Source of the DNA: Nitrospira sp. MA-1
GTDB taxonomy: Bacteria; Nitrospirota; Nitrospiria; Nitrospirales; UBA8639
DNA: 64,000 bases
Reading direction: 5' to 3'
Assembly (NCBI GenBank): GCA_032139905.1
Contig: JAQJDB010000005.1
Coordinates: 293,001 to 357,000 of the forward strand
Shown piece by piece: positions 42,092 through 62,347 of the stretch. The position numbers and the translations under genes are program-made. Every line of letters starts with the position of its first letter. The stretch's first letter is position 1. Under the pieces are notes generated by a model. It ran no database searches. It saw only the letters and a list, made by a program, of their open reading frames with translations, and had not been told where the DNA came from.

Positions 42092-43219
42092 TCAGCTTGA
42101 ATGGGACGCTTCCAGAACCTTCAAGAGCTGCTCTCGGATTTCTTTTGCGGTCGCTCCAAGATCAACTGTAGCAAACCGAATCTCATGGTTCTGGATCAAA
42201 ACGGCCTCGTTAACCATATCGCCCACCGAGGGGTGAAGGAGCAGTCCCGAGGCTTTCTCCGCGAGAGGGTCGCCGTTGCCTTCCTGGGACCGCAAGTAAG
42301 CATAAATCTGATAGACATATCCACTTCGCAGTGTTTCTTCCCGATACCAGCCACGTGTCACTACTGAGTTGAACTTGGTGTCGATAACAATACGGCGTCC
42401 CGCGTCCGAGTGGTCGAGGACGATGTCGGTGCGCATAGACGGGAGGATCTTGTCTATGCCTGGACTTTTGCTTTCAATCTGCCAGCGAATCGTTTTGCCG
42501 GCATGGACGCGCCATCCTTTTTTAGAAAGTACGACATCGTAGAACCCAGCGATCCCTTTTTCGTAAAGCTTCCGAATCCAGGTGATTTCTCTATCCGGTA
42601 GCGATAAATGCTTTGCGCCTGCGATTGCAGTAGGCAAGGCAAGATTGAAAGCCAGATGGGCGGCAGCAACCATTGGCTGGTCATCTACATCGTGTCTGCC
42701 GAAGCGGTCGATGGAGACCTCGCAACGGCCTGGGCGCTCCCCGGTTACGCCCATATGCCTCAAGCTTGCGGCCAACGACCTGCATCGATGAGCCAGTGCA
42801 TCACGGCCAATTATTTTGTAAATTTCCTCCAGAGCTGCTCGGACAAAGCAGTTTCTGGCAGTATCAATAGTCAATTCGTTGAACCGGCAAGCAACCTTCC
42901 CTCGATCCAGTAATCGGTGCCTTTCAGTGTTTAGCAGGTCGATGCGCCCGCGCACACGACCAAGAACAGCCTCCCGCGATTGGTATCCATAACTCAAGTT
43001 GCGTTGAATGCGGCGCTCAACTTGACGGCAGAGCATTTCGGCAACCAGATCTGGGATGTCATCCGGGTTATCCTCTACTGCGACCTTTGCCTTTTCGAGG
43101 TCCCTGAACAGATCCGATGCATACAGCATGAGCAACCAAAGGTTGCGCACCGGGATGCGGCCGATCCGGCCAATTCCTTCATGAGCGTCTGTAATCAAGT
43201 TGGCTGCGGCAAGTGTCAC
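42092..43219 (-). CDS. mcrC: McrC-type restriction endonuclease subunit
   Basis: A 375-residue partner of McrB (McrBC 5-methylcytosine-type restriction). Its N-terminus has RNLWLLMLYASDL and the GRVRGRIDL strand typical of McrC. The PD-(D/E)xK nuclease site lies in MRTDIVLD...RIVIDTKF, with D265, D280 and K282 as catalytic residues. It starts 2 bp after the mcrB stop, so the two genes are translated together. The frame looks intact. Methylated-base specificity cannot be read from the sequence. Confidence 0.9.
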   Translation of the reverse strand: MTLAAANLITDAHEGIGRIGRIPVRNLWLLMLYASDLFRDLEKAKVAVEDNPDDIPDLVAEMLCRQVERRIQRNLSYGYQSREAVLGRVRGRIDLLNTERHRLLDRGKVACRFNELTIDTARNCFVRAALEEIYKIIGRDALAHRCRSLAASLRHMGVTGERPGRCEVSIDRFGRHDVDDQPMVAAAHLAFNLALPTAIAGAKHLSLPDREITWIRKLYEKGIAGFYDVVLSKKGWRVHAGKTIRWQIESKSPGIDKILPSMRTDIVLDHSDAGRRIVIDTKFNSVVTRGWYREETLRSGYVYQIYAYLRSQEGNGDPLAEKASGLLLHPSVGDMVNEAVLIQNHEIRFATVDLGATAKEIREQLLKVLEASHSS

Positions 43220-43221
43220 GA

Positions 43222-45792
43222 TCAGAATTCTTCGAGTAGGCGTTCTCTCGCCTTCTGGGACTTCTCGAGCGCATCGCGCCAGTATTCATCGAGTAGCGGG
43301 CCGATCTCGGTATCAACAACCTGGCGGAACCATTCACGGGCATCACTGATCGGAATACCAAACGGAGGCGTGACATAGCTGTGTCCCACTTGGAACTGAG
43401 GTCCGAGACCAGTGTCGGCTGAAATTTCGCTGTTCAGAGCAATGAGACGCTTTTGGATTTCGACAAGGATGTCTGAATCAATACCGCACTGGGATTGAAC
43501 CCAGTCGTGCCAGGGCTTGCCGAGCGTGGGCTCCAAATCGATGAAGGCAAAACGGCGGCGCAGCGCCAGGTCGACCAGTGCGAGGGAGCGGTCGGCAATA
43601 TTCATCGTGCCGATGACGTAAAGGTTGTCCGGGATGAAAACGCGCTCACCATCCGACCGTTTATAGGAAAGCTCCAAGGCTTCATTCGGCGTTCTCTTGT
43701 CCACCTCGAGCAGCGTCAGCATTTCCCCAAAAATCTGTGCGGGATTCCCGCGATTGATCTCTTCGATGACGACGACGTGCCTTGACGTGGGATCTTTTGC
43801 GGCTGCCTTCATCATCTCGACAAAAGGCCCATCCACCAGCGTGAGCTTGCCGTCTCCCACCGGCCGCCAGCCCCGTACAAAATCCTCGTAAGAAAGGTTC
43901 GGGTGAAACTGGACCGCTCGGACTTTGCTGTCGTCGCGCTGCCCCATCAAAGCGAAAGCCAATCGCTTTGCCAACCAGGTCTTTCCTGTTCCCGTAGGAC
44001 CCTGAAGGATAAGGTTTTTCTTGGTCCGAAGGCGTTCGAGAATCTTTTCTAGTTTTTCCCGTGCCATGAAACATCCATCGCCCATAATATCGTCTATCGA
44101 ATACGGCTCAATCGGCTGAGTTTCATCAGCAACAAAAGGTGAAGCAGAAAAGAAATCTGTAAAGCGCCTATATTTCTCTAACTCAGCTTGAGGCAAGCTT
44201 AATAAAGCCAAACCCCTTTCAGTAATTTGGACAAATCCTCTTCTAGGGAAATCGACCAGTTCAGCCTTTTTCAGGTAAGACTTTGCCCAAGCTGCACGGT
44301 TGTCGAACAAAGGCTGCCCTGTCGACTCAAGAGTTACGACATCATACTTTCCGAGTCCCATTTCTGACTTCATTTTTTGGTACACCTCATTTGCGAGATA
44401 CTCCTTCTCGTCTCTTATGAGTTTTAAAAATGGGATCATCAAATCATCAAACTTAGGCAGCAGGCTCTTTAGATCAGCATCTATTCCGTCTGGCGAAATT
44501 ACTCCATCATCGGTTTCAAACGACTCAATATCCAGGTCAGTCGCGTATGGGTGGGCAGATGTCCCGCTGTCCTTAAAAAGCCAGGCGGCAAGTGACAGCT
44601 CCGGAAAGGAGTGGACTGGATACGCATCCTCTTGGAAGCGGGCTTCGAGGGTATCCAGCACAGCCAGATAATCACTGGCATTACAGCGCCCTTTGGGGCC
44701 GTTCATTCCAATCTGATTATTGAGTTTCTTGCTGATGTAACGCTGGGACTGACCGTCAAGCGTCGGGAAATTCCAGGGGCGAATCCAATAAAGCCCCATT
44801 GTAAGGTTCCATCCCACACCATAGCGCTGGGTCGCTTTGTCGTAGGCAGTGGAAAATGCCGACCGAGCCTCCGCGTCATCCAATTCCGCGAAAGCAATTG
44901 CCTGGGCGAAGGCTTCCCATAGAGTGTCAATGTCATCTGGTTGGCGTTTGTTGTCGAATCCGAAAAACCATGACTTCTGATTGTTGAGAATCGGAATCCC
45001 CTCAAAGGAGTCTGGGACAGGCTCGGACACTCCAAGTAGACTGGCCAGTTCGCTCGCAATAGCTTTGCGATTGGCATCGGTGATCCCCCGGTTGAATATG
45101 CCCATGGCCGTAAATGGGCAGATGTCCTTCAGAGGGCCAGATGAACCATCTGCAAATTGATCCTGCAGGTTGGAGAGGCCATCAACTTTGGAGGCGATAG
45201 CGTGGATTCCGGAAATCAGCTCATCTCGCCGGTACCGAAATGTAAGGAGTTTGTCGGCTACCGCCTCATAAAAGCGGGTCCAATTGAAGCGGCGTTTGTC
45301 GACGGAGGTATCGCCGAAACGCTCTCGCCAGTAAGGAGCGTTGCGGAAACGGTTGATGTCCTGCGCCTTTTCTTCGAAGGTAAATCCAATCAAAGCGTCT
45401 GTGGTCCAGTCACCAGGCAAGACCCGCCAGACCGTGCTTCGATTGGTAAAGAAGTACCACTCACGCGGAGGATCGAAGGGTTTCCAAACAACATTCAATA
45501 TACGGCCATCTCCGAGGTTCTGTTTTACCGTTCCAATGGCTTTGATCGCCATGACTGAAACAGTTTGACCTCGATTATCAAAGGGCAGATCGTGTTTCCG
45601 TGTATAGGACGATTTGATTGCAATACGGTCCCCAACCTGGATGGACTTTACTACGTCGAGGTATTTGTCCTGATAACCATTCTCCCAAATGCCTTCCTGC
45701 AGAAAACGGGGTGTTTGATCCTCGGTTCCATCATATGTGGCCCCGACAAACCAGCAGGCTCGGGCTCCGGCTCCTTTAGGTTTAGAATTCAT
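43222..45792 (-). CDS. mcrB: McrB-type AAA+ GTPase with an internal Mrr_N-like winged helix
   Basis: An 856-residue motor of the McrBC system. Residues 10-125 look like a PUA/EVE-type DNA-base reader (ACWFVGATYDGTEDQTPRF...GIWENGY). Residues 280-410 form an unassigned domain. Residues about 443-535 match an Mrr_N winged helix (DDLMIPFLKLI..., LFDNRAAWAKSYLKKAELVDFPRRGFVQITERG). The AAA+ domain begins near 565 with GPTGTGKT (598-605), Walker B HVVVIEEINRG (672-682) and the McrB signature MNIADRS (730-736). GGAGAGGAG precedes the ATG. The Mrr_N insert is uncommon and may set target choice. Confidence 0.9.
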   Translation of the reverse strand: MNSKPKGAGARACWFVGATYDGTEDQTPRFLQEGIWENGYQDKYLDVVKSIQVGDRIAIKSSYTRKHDLPFDNRGQTVSVMAIKAIGTVKQNLGDGRILNVVWKPFDPPREWYFFTNRSTVWRVLPGDWTTDALIGFTFEEKAQDINRFRNAPYWRERFGDTSVDKRRFNWTRFYEAVADKLLTFRYRRDELISGIHAIASKVDGLSNLQDQFADGSSGPLKDICPFTAMGIFNRGITDANRKAIASELASLLGVSEPVPDSFEGIPILNNQKSWFFGFDNKRQPDDIDTLWEAFAQAIAFAELDDAEARSAFSTAYDKATQRYGVGWNLTMGLYWIRPWNFPTLDGQSQRYISKKLNNQIGMNGPKGRCNASDYLAVLDTLEARFQEDAYPVHSFPELSLAAWLFKDSGTSAHPYATDLDIESFETDDGVISPDGIDADLKSLLPKFDDLMIPFLKLIRDEKEYLANEVYQKMKSEMGLGKYDVVTLESTGQPLFDNRAAWAKSYLKKAELVDFPRRGFVQITERGLALLSLPQAELEKYRRFTDFFSASPFVADETQPIEPYSIDDIMGDGCFMAREKLEKILERLRTKKNLILQGPTGTGKTWLAKRLAFALMGQRDDSKVRAVQFHPNLSYEDFVRGWRPVGDGKLTLVDGPFVEMMKAAAKDPTSRHVVVIEEINRGNPAQIFGEMLTLLEVDKRTPNEALELSYKRSDGERVFIPDNLYVIGTMNIADRSLALVDLALRRRFAFIDLEPTLGKPWHDWVQSQCGIDSDILVEIQKRLIALNSEISADTGLGPQFQVGHSYVTPPFGIPISDAREWFRQVVDTEIGPLLDEYWRDALEKSQKARERLLEEF

Positions 45793-50170: not shown

Positions 50171-50682
50171 CCGTCCCCGAGGCCACTGATCTGCAACGTG
50201 CTAATAGGTGGGTGAAGTCGTCAAAATTTTCGGGTATTCCCCGATTGAAGTTCGCTTCCCCTTCTTGAATTCAAGAGCTGAAAAAGTCTGGAGGTGTTGT
50301 TCCTGATAGCTATTCGTGCTCACGTATTCCGTATGAGGACCGTATACCAAACCTCATCGAAGCGGAAACCCGGCGAGTGCGTATGGAATGACATCACATT
50401 CAATGGCGCTGCCCGTTGGGACTCGATGAACCTCGAAATCATTGACGCTGACCTTGCCGTCATCAAGTTTCTGCCCTCACACGTACCGTCTTTTTTTATT
50501 CTCCTTTCAGTCATCTGTATTCGTGACGAGGAACGGCCTATGTTTGTTGATTCTGTTCGTTTCTTTCGTTATGTTGGCCACGGGATACGATTCCGATCGA
50601 GTGCTGAAGGCTAGTTCTTGATGCGCATACGCGCAAAACAAATATACCGATTCATGACATCTGATCAATATTGGGGGATCAT
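50171..50682. other. Gap of about 510 bp with a short cysN-like fragment
   Basis: The bases 50208-50235 match 54078-54105 inside the cysN fusion gene at 25 of 28 positions, in the same orientation. The minus frame reads PENFDDFTH against PENFDDCTH. No complete gene is seen. The rest likely holds the promoter of the gene at 50683. Confidence 0.4.
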
Positions 50683-53600
50683 ATGAAGAATCGTTGGTTG
50701 TCCTTTTCTCTCACGTGTTTGTGTCTTCTGCTGCAGGCATGTATCAGTAGCTCAACTTTGCTGGCGGAATCCAGTAACGATACATTGCAGCGGAAATCAA
50801 TCATGATCATGTCCCCGACGAATGCCTCGGCGCATACCACGGCACCCATCACCATCCAGGTGCGCGTTGCACATCATGCGGCAAAGGCCATGCAGGTATT
50901 GTTGGATGGCGTCGACATCACCTCGCGGTTTATGGCGCCTGGCCGCAATGGTGTTCGCCGGGCCGAGGTTGACCGGCCCTTGGTCAATTGGGGCAAAAAT
51001 CAGATTTTAGTCAGATCCGGATCGCACGAGGTAAACAGTCATTTTTTCCTGGTTGATCATCCGGACAGCAGTCCTGCCGCGGCCAATCTGCCGCTGCTGA
51101 TCCCCATCAAGACGCGCGTGGTTACCGGCTCAGGCGACAAGGCAGCGGACTACAACATCGCGCTCTACAAGGATCTAGACGATCCCACGGCTGCCACGCT
51201 GATACCGGCGTCCGTCCCTAGCGACGGTTCGAATGCCGGTTTCCAGGTAGTCTTTATGAGACGCTGGGATTTGTCGGTGATATCCAATGTTTCGGTCGTT
51301 AATCAGCGGCCTCCCAGTGATGGCCGGTGGCACGACTCCCCGCTTTATCAATCAATAGTTTACACGCCTGAAGATTGTCTTTCTGCCGGATGCATTCTAC
51401 TCATCCAAAGCCTTGGAACCATTGGTTTTACCCCGTGCTCTAAGGCTTATAGTAAGGATTTTCCAAAGGATTGCGAATCCTTCAAGAATATGCTGAATGG
51501 GCTAGGTCTTTCCTCGAGACTTGCTTACGCCAACGGGGACTCGAAGCAGATCGCGTTCTCTTCCATATCAAACAAAGTACCCTTCCCACCCACGTCCGGG
51601 CCACCGAAACCACCACCCGGTACTTTTTTTGAAAGCCTGACCTGCAGTGGCAGTAATTATGGCAGCGGCCCGGCATGTGACAGTCTCGGCTCTCCCAATA
51701 CGTCGTTCACCGCCCCCAAGGGGGCGGAGCCATCACAACTCGGGGATATCGCCGGTGTTCTCATTCGCGATAATCATCATAATTTCACATTTGCGAGAAA
51801 CGACCGCCTGGTCAGTTTTTCGACCGCCACGATCCCCGATGGTCCCAATGGAGTGATGAATACCATTACCGTGGACGGTGTACCCCATGCGTCGGGCTCA
51901 CTGAACGGCAGCCAAGGCGGGTTCCATCTGCTGATCTTAAACAGCAAGGATTTGACGGTTGTCCGGCACCAGACCTTTCCCAGCAAGCTTGACGCGAGTG
52001 AAGTCGAGGCGCTGTATAGGGTCATCACCGGCTACAAATCCTATGGGTATCTCTTTTTCATCGCCGGGTTTGGATATACAAATTATAACTGCCAATCCAG
52101 TACCAGCACTGGGCTCTGTGGGGCGCGCGTCAATTGGTACACCGCCTCACAATTGATGGGGGATTTGGGGGGAACGCAACAGGTCTTCTACCTCGCCAAC
52201 AATCCCAATGCCGACCCATACCTGTATGACGACTATACCTTGGTTGGATCGTTTGTCGACGGTGTCGGAGGAGAAAGCACGGATACGGGTCTAGATCAGG
52301 TGGGCGCCGAGATGAGCTCCATCATCGCGCGTGAGACGGAAGCGTTTCCGCCGCCTACCGGTGCGGGCCATGGTGCGGATATGGAAGGCTTCCTGCGGGT
52401 GAACCACCAGGGGTATTACAGTCCGGCCTCGTTCGGACACCGCCTCAACCTGAGCAAGACGACGATCGCTGATATCTTGTCGGCGTCGTTGCTGAACCCC
52501 ACGCCCTGGCCGTTCCCCGGACCTGATCCGGCCGGATCGAAGGCCGCCTACGATTGGATCAGCCAGCAGCTGTGTTGCGCCGATATTCGTTCAGCCTATG
52601 TTAATCTGAATATTTCACCTGCCATTTGGCTGGCGGAACTGCGACATCTGACGTACGACTCCTCGAGAATCCCCAATTCTAGTCCCGCAGATTTCGATGC
52701 CATGGTGCAGCAGCTCACCACCGAGTTCCAATACGTCACGCTGGCGCGCCTCTTCCAAAGCAATGTCGTCGGCCTGTACCAGGATCAGCAGGCCAACGTG
52801 TCGCTGCTGTTGCAGGACGATGGCGACAAGATTTTGCATAACCTGCAAGTCGGCCTTACCACCCAGGCGCATGCCGCCTCATGGACAGGCATATTGGGTG
52901 ATGTTTTCGGTGTTGGGTCCAGCTTGCTCAATGCCATTCCCGGCGGCGGGATTGTGGCGGCGGGCACCGAGGTCGCGCTGACCGTTGGCACCGCAATTGC
53001 CAATCAAGCCGCGTCTCATACCAATTCGGCCGCCGGCACGCCCCTGCAGGCGCAGGAGAACCAGGAAATAGCGGCTGGGGATTTAGCGAATCAATTGGCG
53101 AATCAGTTCTCGGCCACACTCGTCTCTCTCGGAAGTGAATTCGATCGCGTCATGACCGACTGGGGACGGCTCAAGACCCTGGCCGCGCCGCTGCTTGCCG
53201 ATCAGGTTCCCTGGGACAACAATGCCACAGGCCTGCTTTTGCAGAGCTACGATCGGGCGGTCCAGCGCGAACTGTACGCCCAGCTCCTCCCAACCAACTT
53301 CGTGGTTCAACACCTTCCGTACACGGGCAATAATCTGCACGTGGTCAATACGTATTTTGATCGGGGTGGCTCTGAATGCAAATGGGAACATTTCATTAAC
53401 AATAAAGCGGTGCTCTACTACCCGAACGGTCACATAAACAATGACCCCAACGAAAATTCTCATTCCGGCAAATACCCATGGAACTATCAATGGGGCATCT
53501 GGGCATTGACACTTGCCAAATATCAAAACGATTCATGCCCCGGCCACAGTCAGAATTACCCGAAGACGTATGACTATCCGGACACGTTTGGCCTGTTCAA

Positions 53601-53721
53601 GCCGCTGGATCCCGGCAATCCGGATGCCTTGGGTGCTTATCGCTACTGGTTCTATACGCGAGGCAGCTTTTCAACTATTGAAAATAACAACAACACGCCG
53701 TGCTACGATGGAAGTTGCTGA
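50683..53721 (+). CDS. Large secreted lipoprotein of unknown function
   Basis: About 1012 residues. A lipobox LLQAC (C20) follows a short signal. Residues 45-120 look Ig-like (MSPTNASAHTTAPITIQV...). The middle is rich in Ser/Gly/Cys with many paired cysteines. Near residues 734-782 there is a Gly/Ala/Val-rich helical stretch (ILGDVFGVGSSLLNAIPGGG) that could insert into a membrane. The C-terminal third has aromatic-rich beta segments. GGGGG lies five bases before the ATG at 50683. I do not recognise the family. It is the largest gene of the accessory stretch. Confidence 0.75.
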   Translation: MKNRWLSFSLTCLCLLLQACISSSTLLAESSNDTLQRKSIMIMSPTNASAHTTAPITIQVRVAHHAAKAMQVLLDGVDITSRFMAPGRNGVRRAEVDRPLVNWGKNQILVRSGSHEVNSHFFLVDHPDSSPAAANLPLLIPIKTRVVTGSGDKAADYNIALYKDLDDPTAATLIPASVPSDGSNAGFQVVFMRRWDLSVISNVSVVNQRPPSDGRWHDSPLYQSIVYTPEDCLSAGCILLIQSLGTIGFTPCSKAYSKDFPKDCESFKNMLNGLGLSSRLAYANGDSKQIAFSSISNKVPFPPTSGPPKPPPGTFFESLTCSGSNYGSGPACDSLGSPNTSFTAPKGAEPSQLGDIAGVLIRDNHHNFTFARNDRLVSFSTATIPDGPNGVMNTITVDGVPHASGSLNGSQGGFHLLILNSKDLTVVRHQTFPSKLDASEVEALYRVITGYKSYGYLFFIAGFGYTNYNCQSSTSTGLCGARVNWYTASQLMGDLGGTQQVFYLANNPNADPYLYDDYTLVGSFVDGVGGESTDTGLDQVGAEMSSIIARETEAFPPPTGAGHGADMEGFLRVNHQGYYSPASFGHRLNLSKTTIADILSASLLNPTPWPFPGPDPAGSKAAYDWISQQLCCADIRSAYVNLNISPAIWLAELRHLTYDSSRIPNSSPADFDAMVQQLTTEFQYVTLARLFQSNVVGLYQDQQANVSLLLQDDGDKILHNLQVGLTTQAHAASWTGILGDVFGVGSSLLNAIPGGGIVAAGTEVALTVGTAIANQAASHTNSAAGTPLQAQENQEIAAGDLANQLANQFSATLVSLGSEFDRVMTDWGRLKTLAAPLLADQVPWDNNATGLLLQSYDRAVQRELYAQLLPTNFVVQHLPYTGNNLHVVNTYFDRGGSECKWEHFINNKAVLYYPNGHINNDPNENSHSGKYPWNYQWGIWALTLAKYQNDSCPGHSQNYPKTYDYPDTFGLFKPLDPGNPDALGAYRYWFYTRGSFSTIENNNNTPCYDGSC

Positions 53722-53997: not shown

Positions 53998-55866
53998 TTA
54001 AATGGAGTACTGGAAGTCGCCACGGCCCCTGGGAGGTTCAGTGAGAATCCCCCTGGATTTGAGCAAATCAATGATTTGGTGGGTGCAGTCGTCGAAATTT
54101 TCCGGCCCTGCAAAAATTAGATCGGTATCCGGTTGAGGCCCTTGTAAATCTTTGGCCATGTGGATGGTGATGACCGGGATCGGGTTCACCAACGTTTGCA
54201 CGGTTTGCACGATGTGTTTGGTCGGTTCATGGAGGGCATTGGTTGTAGAAATCACGAGGGAGCCTGTATCGGTCAGTAATCGTACGACTTCCCCGAACCG
54301 TCGAATGATTTCATCCGGTTTCGTGTCGAGCAGATCCGCATCGAGCCCCCGTTGCAGATTTTCTGGCGCGAGAAGGTAGGCATGCCGGCCTTCTGCAACG
54401 AGCACGGTTTCCAGTTTTCGAGCCAGAAATCCTTTCGCGGTGACATCCGGACCAGTCAGTAAGACCACGGCCGCTCGATGTCCATAGTGCTGGGCCCGGT
54501 CTTCGGCTCCCACATCTCCCTTGACCCAGGCGGAATCCCGTTCTCGTGCCTCCGTTCGAAAATCTTCCTGGTCGTCCTGGACCAGTTCCGTGATGATTCC
54601 ACCTCCCGCCACATCGTATTCATCTACCAATACGAAACGTCCGGTCGTCTCAAACTGTGCATAAAGATCGAACGCAATGGGAGATTTGGTCCGAAGCGTA
54701 ATGTCGGCCACTTCATTCCGTTTCACGGTGGTTTGCGTCTGTCGGTCGTCCAAATTGGTGGCGTCCACAATGCGATGAATAGTGGCCACTTCGCAGGGGA
54801 CTTCCCTGGTGGCCAGTCGTAAGACATATGGCCGGCGGGTTTCTAGGGGTCGGCCTCCTAACCAGAACAGATTGGCACGAATGCGGGTGGAGACCAGCGG
54901 CCTGGCATCTTCGTGTGTCGCAATTTCCCCTCGTTCCACAAAAATTTGTTCGTCCAGGGTTATGCCGACGGATTGGCCGGCTTTGGCTTGAGTTGGCGGT
55001 GGATCGATATTAAAAGCTTCAATCGTTTCAATATTGGCGGATTTGTTGGATGGGGAAAAGACCAGCCGGTCACCAATCTTGAGTTTTCCTGCCGTGATGC
55101 GGCCAACTAAAATCCGGCGGGCGTCGAACTTATACACGTCCTGGATGGGAAGACGAAGTGTTTGTTCTGCACGTTTGGATTCCAGATGGAAATGCGCAAG
55201 GGAATCCAACACGGAGGGGCCCGTGTACCATGGGGTTTCCGGGCTTGAGTTGATGATGTTGATGCCCTGTTTGGCACTCGCGGGGATAACGTATTGGGGA
55301 ATGACGTTCAATTGGGTGAGAAATTCCCGGTATTCTTTTTCGATGGCTTGGAAGGTGTCTTCGCGGTAATTGACCAGGTCCATTTTATTGACCACTACGG
55401 TGACCTGTTTAACTCCTAACATGGAGAGCAATAGCCCATGGCGCTTTGATTGGTCGCGCACGCCTTCAAGGGCATCAATGACCAGGAGCGCTGCTTCGGC
55501 ACGAGCCGCGCCAGACACCATGTTTTTCAGGAATTCCTTATGTCCTGGCGCGTCAATAATGATGTATTGGCGCCCTCCCCATGAGAAGAAGGTTCGGGCC
55601 GTATCGATGGTGATACCCTGTTGTTGTTCTTCTAAAAAGGCATCAAACAAAAAGGCATATTCAAATTCTTTGCCTTGTTGTTTGCAAATGGCCTGGATCT
55701 TTTCGATCTTGCCGGTTGGTAACGTCCCGGTGTCGGCATACAGACGACCCAATAGTGTGGATTTGCCGTGGTCGACGTGACCCACGATGACGATATTCAT
55801 TCTCTCCCGGATGGAATTGTCCTGAGGAGTGTCGTTAGGTAGGCCTATGGCTGGTGTGACCGTCAT
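53998..55866 (-). CDS. cysN: Sulfate adenylyltransferase subunit 1 fused to an APS-kinase-like domain lacking a P-loop
   Basis: A 622-residue protein. Residues 22-430 are CysN, the GTPase of ATP sulfurylase: GHVDHGKS (29-36), DAPGH (105-109), NKMD (160-163) and EF-Tu-like domains. Residues 464-622 align in order with an APS kinase but the P-loop is replaced by GPDVTAKGF (472-480) and the DGDNxRxGL motif by APENLQRGL (500-508). The kinase is therefore probably inactive. The gene starts 2 bp after cysD. With CysD it makes APS from sulfate and ATP. Confidence 0.92.
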
Positions 55867-55868
55867 AT

Positions 55869-56669
55869 TTACATGTATCCATCTTTGCGTAATTGTTCCA
55901 TCCCTCGTCCTTCGTCTTGTGCGCGTCCTGCCCGCTCTGCCACCTTGGTATTGCGTAATTCAATGATGACCTCATCCACATTTTTCGAGGTGGAGTCAAT
56001 GGGAGTGGTGCAGGGGCCGCATCCCAGGCTGCGATAGCGCTTGCCGGTGCCTTGATCCAGATAGAGGTTATCCAAAAAGGGAATGTTTTCTAATTTGATG
56101 TATTCCCAGATATTGATCTCAGTCCAATCCAAAAGGGGATGAATCCGGATATGCGTGCCCGGCGGAAAGGACAGTTTATATTGATCCCAGAGTTCGGGGG
56201 GCTGATCGCGAAAATCCCATTCATTGTTTTTGTCCCGCGGGGAGAAGTACCGCTCCTTTGCCCTGGTACTATCTTCATCCGATCGCACACCCAAAATGAC
56301 CCCTGTGTAGCCCTTTTCCTCCAGCAATTGTTTTAACCCTTGGGTTTTTAAGGCGGTGCAACATTCCACTCGTCCCTTGGTGTGGTTCATCCCTTCGGCC
56401 AGGGCTTTTTTGTTTTGGCCCACGATCAGATTTAATCGCCACTCGCGTGCGAGGCGATCCCGGTATTCAATCATTTCAGGAATTTTGAAGCTGGTGTCAA
56501 CATGGAGTAAGGGAAAGGGAACATGGCCAAAAAATGCTTTTCTGGCCAGCCACAATAACACCGTTGAATCCTTGCCCATGGACCAGAGCATGGCCAGGTT
56601 ATCAAAGTTTTTGTACGCCTCTCGCAGGATATAGACGCTTTGATCTTCTAATTGACGGATATGGTTCAT
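55869..56669 (-). CDS. cysD: Sulfate adenylyltransferase subunit 2
   Basis: A 266-residue PP-loop ATP pyrophosphatase. It has [17 protein letters not shown] (P-loop), [15 protein letters not shown] and [19 protein letters not shown] motifs, and [13 protein letters not shown] at the end. It is shorter than the E. coli protein by about 35 residues. It overlaps the TrpD2-like gene upstream by 4 bp. CysDN forms APS, the substrate of the APS reductase in this operon. Confidence 0.93.
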
Positions 56670-57754
56670 GCTGGCACCACCGCCGGTGAAGGGGGAACGA
56701 CAAATTTTGACTGTGGAGGGCGTCCTTGGACCAAGGCGGTAAAGAACGCTCCGGCTTTTCCGGAGTCCAGTGTTTCCTGGGCGAGCGGTGTGGCTTGCGC
56801 GAGAGAGGAGGCCAACCCTCCGGCGTACATCAGTAAAGCGGCATTCATAATTACCCAGTTCCGTCTGTCGCCTTTCTGGCGATCGACGAGTACTTGTGTC
56901 ATCAATCGGGCTTCATGTTCAGGGGTGCCCGATCCCGGGCCGTTAATGGTTGAACTCATGGCTTGAAATGGTCCGGATCGGAACCCGGCATCATCGGGAC
57001 GAAAGACCAACGATGAAATATGTCCACTTCGTAATTCACGAGCCATGGAGGGCGCGGAAAGGGACAGTTCGGGAAATCCTTCGACTCCTTGAATGATCAG
57101 GGCACGTTTCGCTCCCAGCATGTCCAAGGCTTCCACCATTTTATCCAGATATGGCGGATGGGAAATGCCGATGACTTGTGAGCCCACCCTGGCAGGGTTC
57201 AATAGTCTGGATACCTGATGGGACAAATTTTGTAAACCGAATGCCTGACGCAGGTCCAGCAATTTGGTTAATGGTGCATGGTATCCGGCTAAGTCCATAT
57301 ACACCCAGGGCGATTGAGCGCCTTGCTCAATGGCTTCTGCCGCAGTACGCGCGATGGGAAGCTGTAAGTGATGAAGGACTTGAGGGAGATCGTACGGGGT
57401 GTCCGGGTTTTCAACACCGTGCATGAACAGTCCTGCGCCAGCCGAAGCTGCGACAAGGCTTGCCGCGACGACCACATGGATGGTGTTATGTTTTTCTCCA
57501 TAGAGCGGCATGTCCACAATGTTTTCGGCATGCGGGAGTGGTATCGGTGGCGCCCACTTGCGAACCGTGGTGGTGAACGCGGCAAGTTCGCTGATGGATT
57601 CGGTTTTTATACGCATGGCCATCAAAAAGGCTCCAACCTGAACGTCGGTTGCCTGCCCTTCAATTATGGCGTTAAGCGCATATTTGGCCTCATCCCAGGT
57701 TAAATCCTTGGCACCCTTCAGCCCTTTTCCAATTTTTGCAATCAGGTGATCCAT
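56666..57754 (-). CDS. TrpD2-like glycosyl transferase family protein
   Basis: A 362-residue protein of the anthranilate phosphoribosyltransferase fold. [27 protein letters not shown] and [13 protein letters not shown] match its helical N-terminus. The GTGGD-type loop is replaced by a [14 protein letters not shown] segment, which is the pattern of TrpD2/YbiB proteins that bind nucleic acid and have no confirmed TrpD activity. It is embedded in the sulfate operon, overlapping cysD by 4 bp, with no obvious reason from known pathways. Confidence 0.82.
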
Positions 57755-57768
57755 GCGATGATTCCGGG

Positions 57769-58182
57769 TTAAAAGGTCAAAACCTGGTCAGCGGGAAGAA
57801 CAGCTTCTTTCCAGAAGGCCTCGGCGGTTTGCACTTCATCTAATTCCGGAATGAGTTCTTCGACATTCACTCCAAAATATTTCAGAGAATCTCTACACAC
57901 CGAAAATTTGACGTTTCCCTTTTCTTTAGAGGTCTGCATCATTTTTGGGAGGTCCGTTTTGTCCTCTTTTTTCAAGAGATCACGCACAAAGCCTTCCCGT
58001 CCTTTAAAATCCGAGGACATGGTCAGCTCTTTGATTTTGTCCTTGGTCATTCGGCCTGCGGCTTCGTCACGGAAATACCCACTCACTTCCATGCCGCTGG
58101 CGGCTGCCAGGGCTATCCACTCACAGGCTTGAAACAAGTTGTTCCATCCCCCTTTGGTAATAATGACGGCAATTTTTTTCAC
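57769..58182 (-). CDS. DsrE/DsrF-like protein
   Basis: A 137-residue protein with the DsrE fold: KKIAVIITKGGWNNLFQACEWIALAAASG, a middle of charged helices, and SVCRDSLKYFGVNVEELIPE at the C-terminus. A single Cys (about residue 95) sits where DsrE-like proteins carry sulfur. Such proteins often relay persulfide groups. The placement between cysH and the TrpD2-like gene suggests that it handles a sulfur intermediate. It lies 76 bp after cysH. Confidence 0.85.
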   Translation of the reverse strand: MKKIAVIITKGGWNNLFQACEWIALAAASGMEVSGYFRDEAAGRMTKDKIKELTMSSDFKGREGFVRDLLKKEDKTDLPKMMQTSKEKGNVKFSVCRDSLKYFGVNVEELIPELDEVQTAEAFWKEAVLPADQVLTF

Positions 58183-58258: not shown

Positions 58259-58975
58259 TTATCGATGAAGTCCACATTCGGTTTTCTCCGAACTTTTCCA
58301 TCGTCCGGAGCGTGGGTCTTCTCCCGGCATGACGGGCGCGGTGCAATGGGTACATCCAATACTGGGATAATGCCGATCATGCAAGGCATTGTACGGAACG
58401 TCATTCATGCGAATGTATTCCCAGACCTGTTCCCATGACCAGGTGGCTAAGGGGTTAAATTTTACAAGGCCAAATTTGGTATCCCACTCAATGATGCCGG
58501 CGTTGGCGCGAGTGGGTGATTGATCACGCCGGATTCCCGTCATCCACGCGGCATACTTTGCCAGGATGCGAGTGAGGGGCTCAACCTTTCGCAGTGAGCA
58601 GCATTGGTCGGGCTCCCGTTGCCATAAGGCTTCCCCAAACTGTGTCGCTTGTTCGGAAGGACTGAGTGTTGATTTAACCTGGATAATCTGATCATCCTGT
58701 AATTGATAATGTTGAATGATTCGATCCCGAACAGCATGGGTTTCAGGAAATAAAAAATCGGTATCTAAATAAAAGAGTGTGCTGCCTGGATTTGAGCGGA
58801 ACATCATATCGGCCAGGACGACATCCTCGGCCCCAAAACTACAGGCCAGAATAACCGTTCCCCCATATTCCGCGATCGCGGTCTCGACAATCTGTCGAGG
58901 CGCCTGACCTTCCATGGATCGATTGACCGCGACGAGTTCTTCAGGAGTTGGATGGGTATTGAGGAAAAGAGCCAT
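58259..58975 (-). CDS. cysH: APS reductase (adenosine 5'-phosphosulfate reductase)
   Basis: A 238-residue enzyme that reduces APS to sulfite. The 4Fe-4S ligand pattern C125-C126, C208-x2-C211 and the terminal ECGLHR (nucleophilic C234) mark the iron-sulfur APS-type rather than the PAPS-type enzyme. ACSFGAEDVVLADM near residue 45 forms the substrate P-loop. It lies 6 bp after the sulfite reductase gene. This agrees with the dead kinase domain in the cysN gene. Confidence 0.93.
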   Translation of the reverse strand: MALFLNTHPTPEELVAVNRSMEGQAPRQIVETAIAEYGGTVILACSFGAEDVVLADMMFRSNPGSTLFYLDTDFLFPETHAVRDRIIQHYQLQDDQIIQVKSTLSPSEQATQFGEALWQREPDQCCSLRKVEPLTRILAKYAAWMTGIRRDQSPTRANAGIIEWDTKFGLVKFNPLATWSWEQVWEYIRMNDVPYNALHDRHYPSIGCTHCTAPVMPGEDPRSGRWKSSEKTECGLHR

Positions 58976-58981
58976 GGCGTT

Positions 58982-61492
58982 CTACAGTTCCACTTTCTCC
59001 ACTACCACCCGGAAGTGCTGCTCGTCGGCGTCCATGGGTTCCTGTTCGAGCACGTTGTGCCCATCGTTTCGAAGACTGACCGGGACGTTGCGAATAGGAT
59101 CGCCGCCGTCCAACCATACTTCCAACTGGTCACCGTGGTCCATCATTTCTAATTTGAGCTTGGTTTTCACGTAATTCATGGGACATGCCACGCCCCGGAG
59201 GTCGTAAACGGGCACACCTGATGGGGAGGATGTCTTTTCAGGTGGCGTGGTTGCCTCCTTGGTTAATTCAGTGGGCTTTTGTCCCAGTTCAGCGGGAGCC
59301 AGCTTGAGGTCCTGACCGATTTGGTCTGAGACGGTCCGGCAGAGGTCCACAAAACCTTTGGTAAACGCGATTTTTCCTTGTGTCAGGTCAGCCGAGGCGT
59401 CCTTGTTCCCCAGATCGCCCACTATAGAGGCCAGATTATGGTATTCCGCAGGCATGAGCCCTTTGGCCACGATCAACTTGTTAAATTCGGCTAAGGTGTC
59501 GGCATCGGTATTCGGATCGATTCCTTCTGTGACAAGGATGGCTTTCGCTCCTGCCACCACGGCTCGATAAGCCTTGTTAATGGCAAACGCGTATTGGTGT
59601 TTTTCAGCCAAAATGCGTGCTTGGTACAGTTCCTGTTCCGCTTCAAGAATCCGATTGTCGATCATTTCCAATGCCCCACCCGCACATTCACCAGGTCCGA
59701 GGTCCTCAACCGAAAATTCCTCGTCGCCTTCCCAGTCAACATAGAATTGTGGATCCTCTTGATAGGTGGGAAGGATGGTGTAGGGGATCAGTTCATCTTT
59801 CAGTTTGATTTTTCCGGTGCGGTCAATAAAACCTAATAATGACTCCCCATTATTTTTGTCCCGGCGATAGAGATCGAGAAGATGCTGGACTGCAGCGGGA
59901 ACGTTTTTCGCAGGAACCTTCACAATGAGTTGGCCAATTTTGGCTGTGCCGTTGACCCGTCCCCCAAGGTGCAGTTCGTACACTGGCGCGACATGGTCTC
60001 CAATACGTTTGCCGACTCCATGTAAGCCGATCGTGGCGATATGATGTTGCGCGCAGGAATTGTGGCAGCCACTGATTTTCACGTTCACCCCTTCCAAATC
60101 CTCAGCGATTTTCCCGGCAGGGAATACTTCTGCCAGTGCTCGTGCCAGTCCTTTAGAAGAGGTGATTCCCAGTCCGCAGGTGTCGGTCCCCGGGCAGGAA
60201 ACGATATCGGCGACTCCCTCAGCTCCAGGGTCCCCCAATCCATGAGCGACTAATTCGTCATAGAAGTGCCGGAGGCGAATATCGGGAACCCAACGTACCA
60301 TAATGTTCTGATTGATGGTGGTACGAAGGTTTCCGTTTGCATACCGTTCGGTGAGCTCAGCCAGCGCAAACATTTGCTCAGATGTGATATCACCCGAGGG
60401 GAGTCTCACCGCCGCTGTTCTAAATCCTGTCTGGCGTTGAGTGATCACATTTGTCGCGCACCAATGATCGTACGCTTCTTGAGATGCGGGATCTCCATTG
60501 ATGGATGAGCCCTGCAGTTGGCTGTGTCCATTGCCTTGGTGGGATGTGCCGTTTCCGGGTTTCGTCGGCATTATTAAGGGAGGATCATCAGGATACGGGG
60601 CCGTTTCCAATCCAAATTTGGTGGCGCCGGATTGCAACATGGCATCGTAGGTCTCTTTCCATCGTTTGGAAAATTCCTCGAACCCTAGCTTGTCAACGAC
60701 AAATTTCATGCGGGCTTTGCTTCGATTTTTCCGATTGCCTAAATTATCAAACACCTTGAGCATGGCCTCGGTGGCGGGAATCAACTCTTCCATGGGAACA
60801 AATTCATGTAGCACTTTGGCGAGGCGCGGAGTGGACCCCAACCCGCCTCCGACGACCATTTTGAACCCCGGAACCCCCTCAGAATTGCGAGCAGCCAGAA
60901 GCCCGACATCGTGGATGGGGGTTAAGGCGCAGTCTTGCTTGCAGCCGGAAAACGCAATTTTGAACTTGCGAGGGAGGCTTTGGTTGAGCGGGTTTCGTAA
61001 TAGATGATAGGCCACGGTTTTTGCATACGGTGTCACGTCAAACACTTCGCCAGGACACACCCCTGCCAAGGCACAGGCTGTGACATTTCGCACGGTATTG
61101 GCACAGGCTTCCCGGGTGGTGAGTCCAACTTCCGCCAGTTTTCGCATGATGGTGCCAACGTGGCGGAGGGGAACAAAGTGCAGTTGAATGTCCTGCCGCG
61201 TGGTGACATGTCCCACGCCGGTCGCGAAGGTATCCGCAATGTCAGCCACTTGGCGTAGTTGATTTGCGTTAAGGCCGCCAAAGGGAATCTTAATCCGGAC
61301 CATTTGGACATCAGGCTGTCGCTGACCATAAATGCCGTATTGGAGTCGAAACGGTTTAAATACGTCGGATGGAGTGTCACCTGATTGGAGGCGATTCACC
61401 TCATCCTCGAATGTTTCTATTTCCTCAAGAATCTCCTGGGGTATCGGAGCCGTGTGAATAGGAGGGTGGCTGGTGACTGGTGAGGTGCTCAT
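58982..61492 (-). CDS. Sulfite reductase (siroheme) fused to a helical domain and a TusA domain
   Basis: An 836-residue protein that reduces sulfite to sulfide. Residues 40-555 are two siroheme reductase half-repeats. The second half has C433-x5-C439 and C476-x3-C480, the normal siroheme-4Fe4S set; the first half also keeps C140-x5-C146 and C184-x3-C188. Residues about 610-735 form an all-helical domain, HEPN-like in pattern. Residues 760-836 are TusA-like with RGVACPMN (C770), a sulfur-relay site. GGAG lies before the ATG. The fusion suggests sulfide is passed on to a carrier. Confidence 0.9.
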   Translation of the reverse strand: MSTSPVTSHPPIHTAPIPQEILEEIETFEDEVNRLQSGDTPSDVFKPFRLQYGIYGQRQPDVQMVRIKIPFGGLNANQLRQVADIADTFATGVGHVTTRQDIQLHFVPLRHVGTIMRKLAEVGLTTREACANTVRNVTACALAGVCPGEVFDVTPYAKTVAYHLLRNPLNQSLPRKFKIAFSGCKQDCALTPIHDVGLLAARNSEGVPGFKMVVGGGLGSTPRLAKVLHEFVPMEELIPATEAMLKVFDNLGNRKNRSKARMKFVVDKLGFEEFSKRWKETYDAMLQSGATKFGLETAPYPDDPPLIMPTKPGNGTSHQGNGHSQLQGSSINGDPASQEAYDHWCATNVITQRQTGFRTAAVRLPSGDITSEQMFALAELTERYANGNLRTTINQNIMVRWVPDIRLRHFYDELVAHGLGDPGAEGVADIVSCPGTDTCGLGITSSKGLARALAEVFPAGKIAEDLEGVNVKISGCHNSCAQHHIATIGLHGVGKRIGDHVAPVYELHLGGRVNGTAKIGQLIVKVPAKNVPAAVQHLLDLYRRDKNNGESLLGFIDRTGKIKLKDELIPYTILPTYQEDPQFYVDWEGDEEFSVEDLGPGECAGGALEMIDNRILEAEQELYQARILAEKHQYAFAINKAYRAVVAGAKAILVTEGIDPNTDADTLAEFNKLIVAKGLMPAEYHNLASIVGDLGNKDASADLTQGKIAFTKGFVDLCRTVSDQIGQDLKLAPAELGQKPTELTKEATTPPEKTSSPSGVPVYDLRGVACPMNYVKTKLKLEMMDHGDQLEVWLDGGDPIRNVPVSLRNDGHNVLEQEPMDADEQHFRVVVEKVEL

Positions 61493-61592: not shown

Positions 61593-62051
61593 CTAAATAT
61601 GATACATCACGCAACGCTGGGTTTCGAGCGTTTGATACTGTTCAACCAATTTTTGTAACGAAATGCCCCGAAGGACTGCCTGCTCCGCCTCTTGAACCTG
61701 TTGCCAAATATTTGAAAGTAAGACGTTGTGAGCTTGTCGGCTTTCTGAATGACCATTGGCGTGTCCTTGTTGAAGCAATGGTTCTGTCGCCCATCCATTC
61801 ATTGAATTCACTAAATCCGCCAGGGAAATTTGATTGGGGTGTTGAGCCAGGGTATACCCTCCTTGTGCTCCTCGCAGACTTCTAATAATCCCAGCTTGTT
61901 TCAAGTGCTGAAGAATTTGCTCAATAAAACGAGAGGGTATCCCCTGTCGTTGAGCGATGATTTTTGCCTGAAGCGGAATGGATCTGTCCTGTCTTGCTAG
62001 CTCGATTGTGGCCAAAATCCCATAGGTGACTTTGATGGGGAACTTGTTCAT
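61593..62051 (-). CDS. Rrf2-family transcriptional regulator
   Basis: A 152-residue winged-helix regulator: KVTYGILATIELA, IPSRFIEQILQHLKQAGIIRSLRGAQGGYTLA (recognition helix and wing), then ISLADLVNSMNG. Only one Cys (near the C-terminus) is present, so an IscR-type cluster is unlikely; it is closer to CymR-type cysteine regulators. The ATG at 62051 is preferred over a TTG two codons earlier. It lies 100 bp upstream of the sulfite reductase gene and on the same strand, so it likely controls the operon. Confidence 0.85.
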   Translation of the reverse strand: MNKFPIKVTYGILATIELARQDRSIPLQAKIIAQRQGIPSRFIEQILQHLKQAGIIRSLRGAQGGYTLAQHPNQISLADLVNSMNGWATEPLLQQGHANGHSESRQAHNVLLSNIWQQVQEAEQAVLRGISLQKLVEQYQTLETQRCVMYHI

Positions 62052-62347
62052 TTTCAATTCATACTAAAACGATAGGAATAATATGCAATATAAAAGGCGC
62101 AGAAAACATTTGTCAAGAACTGTGAGCCGTACTTTTTCTCTCAAAAAATGCATGGGATTAAAAATGGGTATGGACGATTGCCTCCTGGACGGATCTGTCA
62201 TCAGGAGTCCATGGAATCAATCAAACGAAAAGCTGAACAACAATCGAATGGTCTCTAAATATTGGTGAAAAATGGGCCGATACCTGACTGGGAACGTATT
62301 ATGAAAAGCAACGGTTGCAACCTTTCGGAGCTGTGAGGACCATTGAG

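What the first reader, a model, noticed from the sequence alone, without database searches (positions are those of the whole stretch)
58982..61492. Sulfite reductase-helical-TusA triple fusion with cysteine sets in both halves
Both halves keep a C-x5-C plus C-x3-C set (C140/C146/C184/C188 and C433/C439/C476/C480), while assimilatory enzymes usually keep only the second. The protein continues with a helical (HEPN-like) domain and a TusA-like sulfur carrier with C770. Sulfide might be loaded directly onto a persulfide carrier without release.
Basis: partly seen in the sequence, partly recalled or inferred. Interest (0 to 1): 0.7.

Follow-up and report, generated by a model that had tools for sequence, protein, structure and literature searches.

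The report
Sulfite reductase carrying its sulfur carrier
Nitrospira-type bacteria, which include nitrite oxidisers of soil and wastewater, make sulfite reductase as one long protein that ends in its own sulfur-carrying domain and keeps a second iron-sulfur site that other assimilatory sulfite reductases have lost, which suggests that reduced sulfur may be handed over inside the protein instead of being released as sulfide.

Summary
The 836-aa ORF has all named cysteines, two NIR_SIR halves, a HEPN-fold helical domain and a TusA domain. It is no oddity of one genome: 57 of the 60 nearest genomes (own included) carry it, and orthologues reach about 42% identity across Nitrospirota. All eight cluster cysteines, C130, C603 and C770 are essentially invariant. 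It is the only sulfite-type siroheme reductase of its genome and heads a sulfate-assimilation operon (Rrf2, SiR-HEPN-TusA, CysH, DsrE-like, TrpD-like, CysD, CysNC). In deeper lineages the same fusion sits with AprAB and Sat. Fusion and DsrB never co-occurred in genomes tested for both.

Pocket residues survive only in half 1, so one active site is expected, plus a second, non-catalytic [4Fe-4S] site of the kind assimilatory enzymes are thought to have lost.

Direct loading of the carrier is plausible but unproven; the transferred sulfur should be zero-valent (persulfide), not sulfide. Support is indirect: TusA as the next gene where unfused, two TusA domains beside DsrEFH-like genes in one lineage, and an invariant, poorly ordered GECAG cysteine between enzyme and carrier. 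I found no description of this fusion in the open-access library.

The parts
58982..61492 (-). SiR-HEPN-TusA fusion gene, 836 aa
60623..61360 (-). sulfite reductase half 1 (residues 45-290): invariant pocket residues R66, R99, R135, K176, K178
60929..61075 (-). half-1 CX5C...CX3C set, C140/C146/C184/C188 (second, non-catalytic cluster site)
61103..61105 (-). C130, aligned with the active-site cysteine of M. tuberculosis NirA
   Evidence: alignment; identity as Cys161 from own knowledge
59783..60475 (-). sulfite reductase half 2 (residues 340-570); pocket residues lost
60053..60196 (-). half-2 CX5C...CX3C set, C433/C439/C476/C480 (cluster of the catalytic siroheme)
59678..59698 (-). GPGECAG motif (599-605) with invariant C603, pLDDT under 50
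59303..59674 (-). helical HEPN-fold domain (residues 607-730)
58991..59209 (-). TusA domain (residues 762-834), carrier cysteine C770 in a CPMN motif
61593..62057 (-). Rrf2 regulator, CymR-like, first gene of the operon
58259..58975 (-). CysH, APS reductase type with CC and CxxC motifs
57769..58182 (-). DsrE-like sulfur-transfer protein with a cysteine in VKFSVC
56666..57754 (-). TrpD/YbiB-like glycosyltransferase-family gene, role unknown
55869..56669 (-). CysD
53998..55866 (-). CysNC-like; APS-kinase part without P-loop

Best explanation
This is the assimilatory sulfite reductase of Nitrospira-type bacteria, with its sulfur acceptor built in. Sulfite binds at one catalytic siroheme, held by the basic pocket of half 1 and coupled to the [4Fe-4S] cluster of half 2. 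A second [4Fe-4S] cluster on the half-1 cysteines is a retained ancestral site without a working pocket; it may help electron entry or stability and may or may not carry a structural siroheme. Sulfur at the zero-valent level is taken by C603 on a mobile segment behind the core, or directly by C770, held as a persulfide on the TusA domain, and passed to DsrE-type proteins or reduced for cysteine synthase. Shown: domains, conservation, a single set of catalytic residues, the operon. Inferred: the cluster in half 1, ferredoxin as donor, the persulfide handover and its order.
For: Only sulfite-type NIR_SIR protein of the genome (Lys at 178 where the own NirA has Asn). Sits in a CysH-CysD-CysNC operon across the order and with AprAB-Sat in deeper lineages. 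None of 24 DsrB-bearing genomes has it. Half-1 pocket invariant, half-2 pocket lost, both cluster motifs kept. TusA is the next gene where unfused; two TusA domains beside DsrEFH-like genes in L137; DsrE-like gene in the window operon; C603 invariant in a low-confidence segment. Literature: assimilatory sulfite reductases were found to make zero-valent sulfur and cysteine synthases to prefer glutathione persulfide (PMC13188885); DsrAB passes sulfur to DsrC (PMC10229431).
Against: No biochemistry and no coordinates. C603 occurs in relatives without TusA (Thermus, Bacteroidota), so it need not serve the carrier. L136 lost half of the half-1 set yet keeps the fusion, so the second cluster is dispensable. 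A stand-alone TusA and CysK are also present. The DsrE-like gene was detected mainly in close relatives.
Confidence: 0.55

Rival explanations
1. Ordinary assimilatory sulfite reductase that releases sulfide to cysteine synthase; the TusA domain does separate sulfur-trafficking work and is fused for co-expression only.
For: CysK is present over its cut-off; relatives with the same core lack TusA; TusA is separate in one family.
Against: Fusion kept over about 42% identity with C770 invariant; where split, TusA stays the next gene; TusA duplicated beside DsrEFH-like genes in L137.
Confidence: 0.28
2. The enzyme also or mainly runs oxidatively: TusA brings sulfane sulfur to the siroheme, sulfite is made and then oxidised by AprAB and Sat, like the reverse Dsr pathway.
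For: AprAB, Sat and DsrE-type genes beside the fusion in deeper lineages.
Against: The window operon has CysH and CysDN, which work in assimilation; CymR-like regulator; no DsrMK-type genes seen beside it; the assimilation-type F420 enzyme was found unidirectional (PMC10229431).
Confidence: 0.08
3. The half-1 cysteines hold no [4Fe-4S] cluster but a disulfide pair or another metal.
For: Pocket of the second site is degenerate; L136 lost two of the four.
Against: Exact register and spacing with the half-2 cluster motif and near-complete conservation of all four together.
Confidence: 0.15
4. It is a nitrite reductase mislabelled by context.
For: Top sequence hits in the PDB are plant nitrite reductases.
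Against: Lys at 178 instead of the Asn of nitrite reductases (PMC13381448 on the Lys/Asn difference); sulfate operon; separate NirA beside an FNT-type transporter ORF.
Confidence: 0.03

Closest known systems
M. tuberculosis NirA (PDB 1zj8), ferredoxin-dependent assimilatory sulfite reductase
   Same: Two-half siroheme core, best fold match; cysteine aligned with C130; one catalytic site
   Different: NirA aligns without the half-1 cluster cysteines and has no GECAG, helical or TusA part
DsrAB with DsrC (dissimilatory sulfite reductase and its carrier)
   Same: Two cluster sites, one of them non-catalytic, and a cysteine carrier that could take the sulfur from the siroheme
   Different: Single chain, no inserted ferredoxin domain, carrier is TusA and covalently attached, assimilatory operon; only weak DsrA/DsrB model matches
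Thermus oshimai sulfite reductase (L188)
   Same: Core 42% identical; conserved GECA cysteine at its very C-terminus; sulfate-assimilation cluster
   Different: No helical or TusA domain; only 2 of 4 half-1 cysteines
Persicobacteraceae SiR-HEPN (L187, L189, L190)
   Same: Core, GECAG motif and helical domain
   Different: No TusA domain; half-1 cluster cysteines all lost
E. coli TusA and the TusBCD (DsrEFH) relay
   Same: TusA domain; DsrE-family genes nearby
   Different: TusA here is fused to a sulfite reductase, motif CPMN instead of CPxP, and no cysteine desulfurase is needed as source in the proposed route

Membership tests
Assimilatory siroheme sulfite reductase (NirA/SiRHP type) | Two fused NIR_SIR_ferr plus NIR_SIR halves in one chain | tested here: met
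Assimilatory siroheme sulfite reductase (NirA/SiRHP type) | CX5CXnCX3C motif in the second half | tested here: met
Assimilatory siroheme sulfite reductase (NirA/SiRHP type) | Basic substrate pocket in the first half, with sulfite-type Lys | tested here: met
   R66, R135, K176, K178 invariant
Assimilatory siroheme sulfite reductase (NirA/SiRHP type) | First cluster motif lost (usual in the family, not strictly required) | tested here: not met
   Half-1 motif complete in 124 of 125
Assimilatory siroheme sulfite reductase (NirA/SiRHP type) | Sulfite reduction activity with bound siroheme | not testable with these tools
   needs protein
DsrAB dissimilatory sulfite reductase | Separate DsrA and DsrB subunits scoring over the curated cut-offs | tested here: not met
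   dsrB 79 bits (cut-off 341.5), dsrA 34 bits (cut-off 392.9)
DsrAB dissimilatory sulfite reductase | Two cluster-binding sites, one non-catalytic | tested here: inconclusive
   Both motifs present, half-2 pocket lost; cofactors not seen
TusA sulfur carrier | TusA domain over the Pfam cut-off and TusA fold | tested here: met
TusA sulfur carrier | CPxP motif | tested here: not met
   CPMN here, CPxN in all aligned members and CPYN in the own stand-alone TusA
TusA sulfur carrier | Persulfide on the cysteine | not testable with these tools
   needs protein
HEPN ribonuclease | Conserved Rx4-6H motif | tested here: not met
   An RILAEKH match in the query is not conserved in orthologues; HEPN by fold only

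The most novel reading that the evidence does not exclude
A single-chain sulfite reductase with two iron-sulfur sites that, like DsrAB with DsrC, hands zero-valent sulfur to its own carrier through C603 and C770: the missing sulfur carrier of assimilatory sulfate reduction, and a living picture of the step between the duplicated, fused ancestor and modern one-site assimilatory enzymes.
Probability: 0.35. Interest if true: 0.85.

Novelty: new variant of a known kind. Interest (0 to 1): 0.62.

Why it matters
Assimilatory sulfite reductases are thought to have arisen by duplication and fusion followed by loss of one siroheme-cluster site (PMC10229431); this family shows the fused state with both cluster motifs still intact. 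It also offers a testable protein for the 2026 report that assimilatory sulfite reductases release zero-valent sulfur, for which no DsrC-like carrier is known in assimilation (PMC13188885): here a carrier is part of the enzyme. The host group contains important nitrite oxidisers, and I found no description of how they hand on reduced sulfur.

Tried and rejected
Nitrite reductase: rejected by Lys178, the operon and the separate NirA. Two catalytic sites: rejected, half-2 pocket residues are lost. HEPN ribonuclease or toxin module: rejected, motif not conserved. Long NirA-type ORFs of 550-1700 aa seen in the phylum scan (for example L156, L163, L165): pyridine-nucleotide reductase plus BFD plus NirA-type fusions or plain NirA-like proteins, not members. 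L146 (1188 aa): the same fusion in an ORF with an unassigned N-terminal stretch that may be over-long. The structure tool returns no coordinates, so cluster geometry and the position of C603 could not be measured. The alignments to 1zj8 did not reach the tyrosine of its Cys-Tyr link, so the Y55 pairing stayed untested. Literature searches found no description of a SiR-TusA fusion.

Full report
Observation. The ORF at 58982-61492 (-) is 836 aa and has the cysteines exactly as listed. Pfam places two NIR_SIR_ferr and NIR_SIR pairs, a HEPN domain (615-688) and a TusA domain (763-833), all above curated cut-offs. An AlphaFold2 model made with 39 orthologues (mean pLDDT 82) matches M. tuberculosis NirA best; the helical domain matches the HEPN protein 2hsb and the last domain matches TusA/YhhP. 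Profile alignment of the two halves is highly significant and pairs all four cysteines of one half with those of the other, with C-x5-C and C-x3-C spacing in both.

Conservation and spread. Of the 60 nearest genomes (own included) 57 match the reductase; G020 matches only by a TusA, G035 only by a NirA, G053 not at all. Of 197 Nitrospirota genomes 85 carry the family, 12 only NirA-like proteins and 100 nothing at E 1e-30 (my count from the table). Across 125 sequences the half-2 cysteines, C130 and C603 are invariant, the half-1 set is complete in 124, and C770 is present wherever the domain is fused. The exception, L136, has lost two half-1 cysteines but keeps the helical and TusA domains. 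In three genomes of one family (L147, L149, L150) TusA is not fused but is the next gene on the same strand, 36 to 50 bases away. A tree of the reductase core places these beside fused relatives, so this is most simply a later split.

Active site. The pocket residues of half 1 (R66, R99, R135, K176, K178) are invariant. Their half-2 partners are not kept; the R135 equivalent is Glu in 102 of 125. The site of this enzyme class is composite: basic residues from one half or protomer, cluster from the other (PMC13381448, PMC10229431). One catalytic site is therefore expected: half-1 pocket with half-2 cluster. The half-1 cysteines would hold a second cluster without a working pocket, comparable to the structural site of DsrAB. 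Jespersen and co-workers describe assimilatory enzymes as having lost one siroheme-cluster site (PMC10229431). Partial sets in the own NirA (3 of 4) and in Thermus (2 of 4) argue for an ancestral set lost repeatedly. C130 aligns with position 172 of the 1zj8 chain, which I take as Cys161 of M. tuberculosis NirA, the cysteine of its Cys-Tyr link; the tag offset and that link are my own knowledge. Y55 is invariant, but the alignments did not reach the NirA tyrosine, so that pairing is a guess.

Context. The window operon is Rrf2 (CymR-like), the fusion, CysH, DsrE-like, TrpD-like, CysD, CysNC. This set is kept over the order Nitrospirales, apart from the DsrE-like gene, which was detected mainly in close relatives. 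CysH has the CC and CxxC motifs of [4Fe-4S] APS reductases, and the APS-kinase part of CysNC has no P-loop, so the route probably runs straight from APS. In deeper lineages (L136, L137, L138, L140, L142-L145) the neighbours are AprA, AprB and Sat instead, mostly with Rrf2. The fusion is the constant part while the upstream enzymes were exchanged. Of 24 DsrB-bearing genomes searched in both runs none has the fusion. The only other NIR_SIR protein of the genome is a NirA with Asn at the K178 position, beside an ORF that reads as an FNT-type transporter. So this is very probably the sulfite reductase of sulfate assimilation in bacteria without the dissimilatory enzyme.

How it may work. A thiol cannot become a persulfide by meeting sulfide unless something is oxidised; it can if it takes sulfur at the zero-valent level. 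DsrC does this with DsrAB (PMC10229431). Cao and co-workers report that several assimilatory sulfite reductases make zero-valent sulfur and that most cysteine synthases tested prefer glutathione persulfide, and they note that no DsrC is known to act in assimilation (PMC13188885). A covalently attached TusA fits that gap. Two further details point the same way. L137 has two TusA domains and is followed by a TusB/DsrH-like and two further DsrE-superfamily-like genes, the classical TusA partners. C603, in an invariant GECAG motif, lies on a segment between enzyme and carrier that the model cannot place with confidence. C603 is also in Bacteroidota relatives that have the helical domain but no TusA, and lies at the very end of the Thermus protein, so it probably serves the reductase itself. 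The handover and its order are inference.

Limits. No coordinates, no biochemistry, and spread outside Nitrospirota only sampled in plasmid records. The paper library holds open-access papers only; no description of this fusion was found there. The genome has an ordinary cysteine synthase over its cut-off and no O-acetylhomoserine sulfhydrylase over its cut-off, so use of free sulfide is not excluded.

Verdict. Observation confirmed. Assimilatory sulfite reductase: very likely (about 0.93). Second cluster on half 1: likely (about 0.8). Built-in acceptance of zero-valent sulfur by TusA: somewhat more likely than not (about 0.55), unproven. A new variant of a known kind of enzyme.

Noticed in passing
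window 53998-55866 (-): CysNC-like protein whose APS-kinase part reads [11 protein letters not shown] where a P-loop is expected, so the kinase is probably dead; this fits the APS-type CysH.
   Followed up: partly
window 56666-57754 (-): A TrpD/YbiB-like gene stays in the sulfate operon across the order; its role there is unknown.
   Followed up: no
L137:3553-6240 and L137:275-3462: The fusion has two TusA domains and is followed by DsrH-, DsrE- and DsrF-like genes and Sat, with AprAB, a possible sulfite exporter and Rrf2 upstream.
   Followed up: partly
L136, L138, L140, L142-L145: AprA, AprB and Sat next to the fusion in genomes where no DsrB was found or which were not tested for it: possible assimilatory use of AprAB.
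   Followed up: partly
L156:5199-8459, L163:5794-9006, L165:4205-7180: Single-chain pyridine-nucleotide reductase plus BFD plus two-half NirA-type fusions of 990-1090 aa.
   Followed up: no
window 42092-45792 (-): Mrr_N-AAA_5 protein next to a McrBC-component gene: a McrBC-like restriction pair.
   Followed up: no
window 50671-53721 (+): ORF of 1016 aa without any Pfam match at E 0.001.
   Followed up: no
L187, L189, L190 (Persicobacteraceae plasmids): Large Bacteroidota plasmids carry SiR with the helical domain but no TusA, followed by siroheme synthesis genes in the two annotated records.
   Followed up: partly
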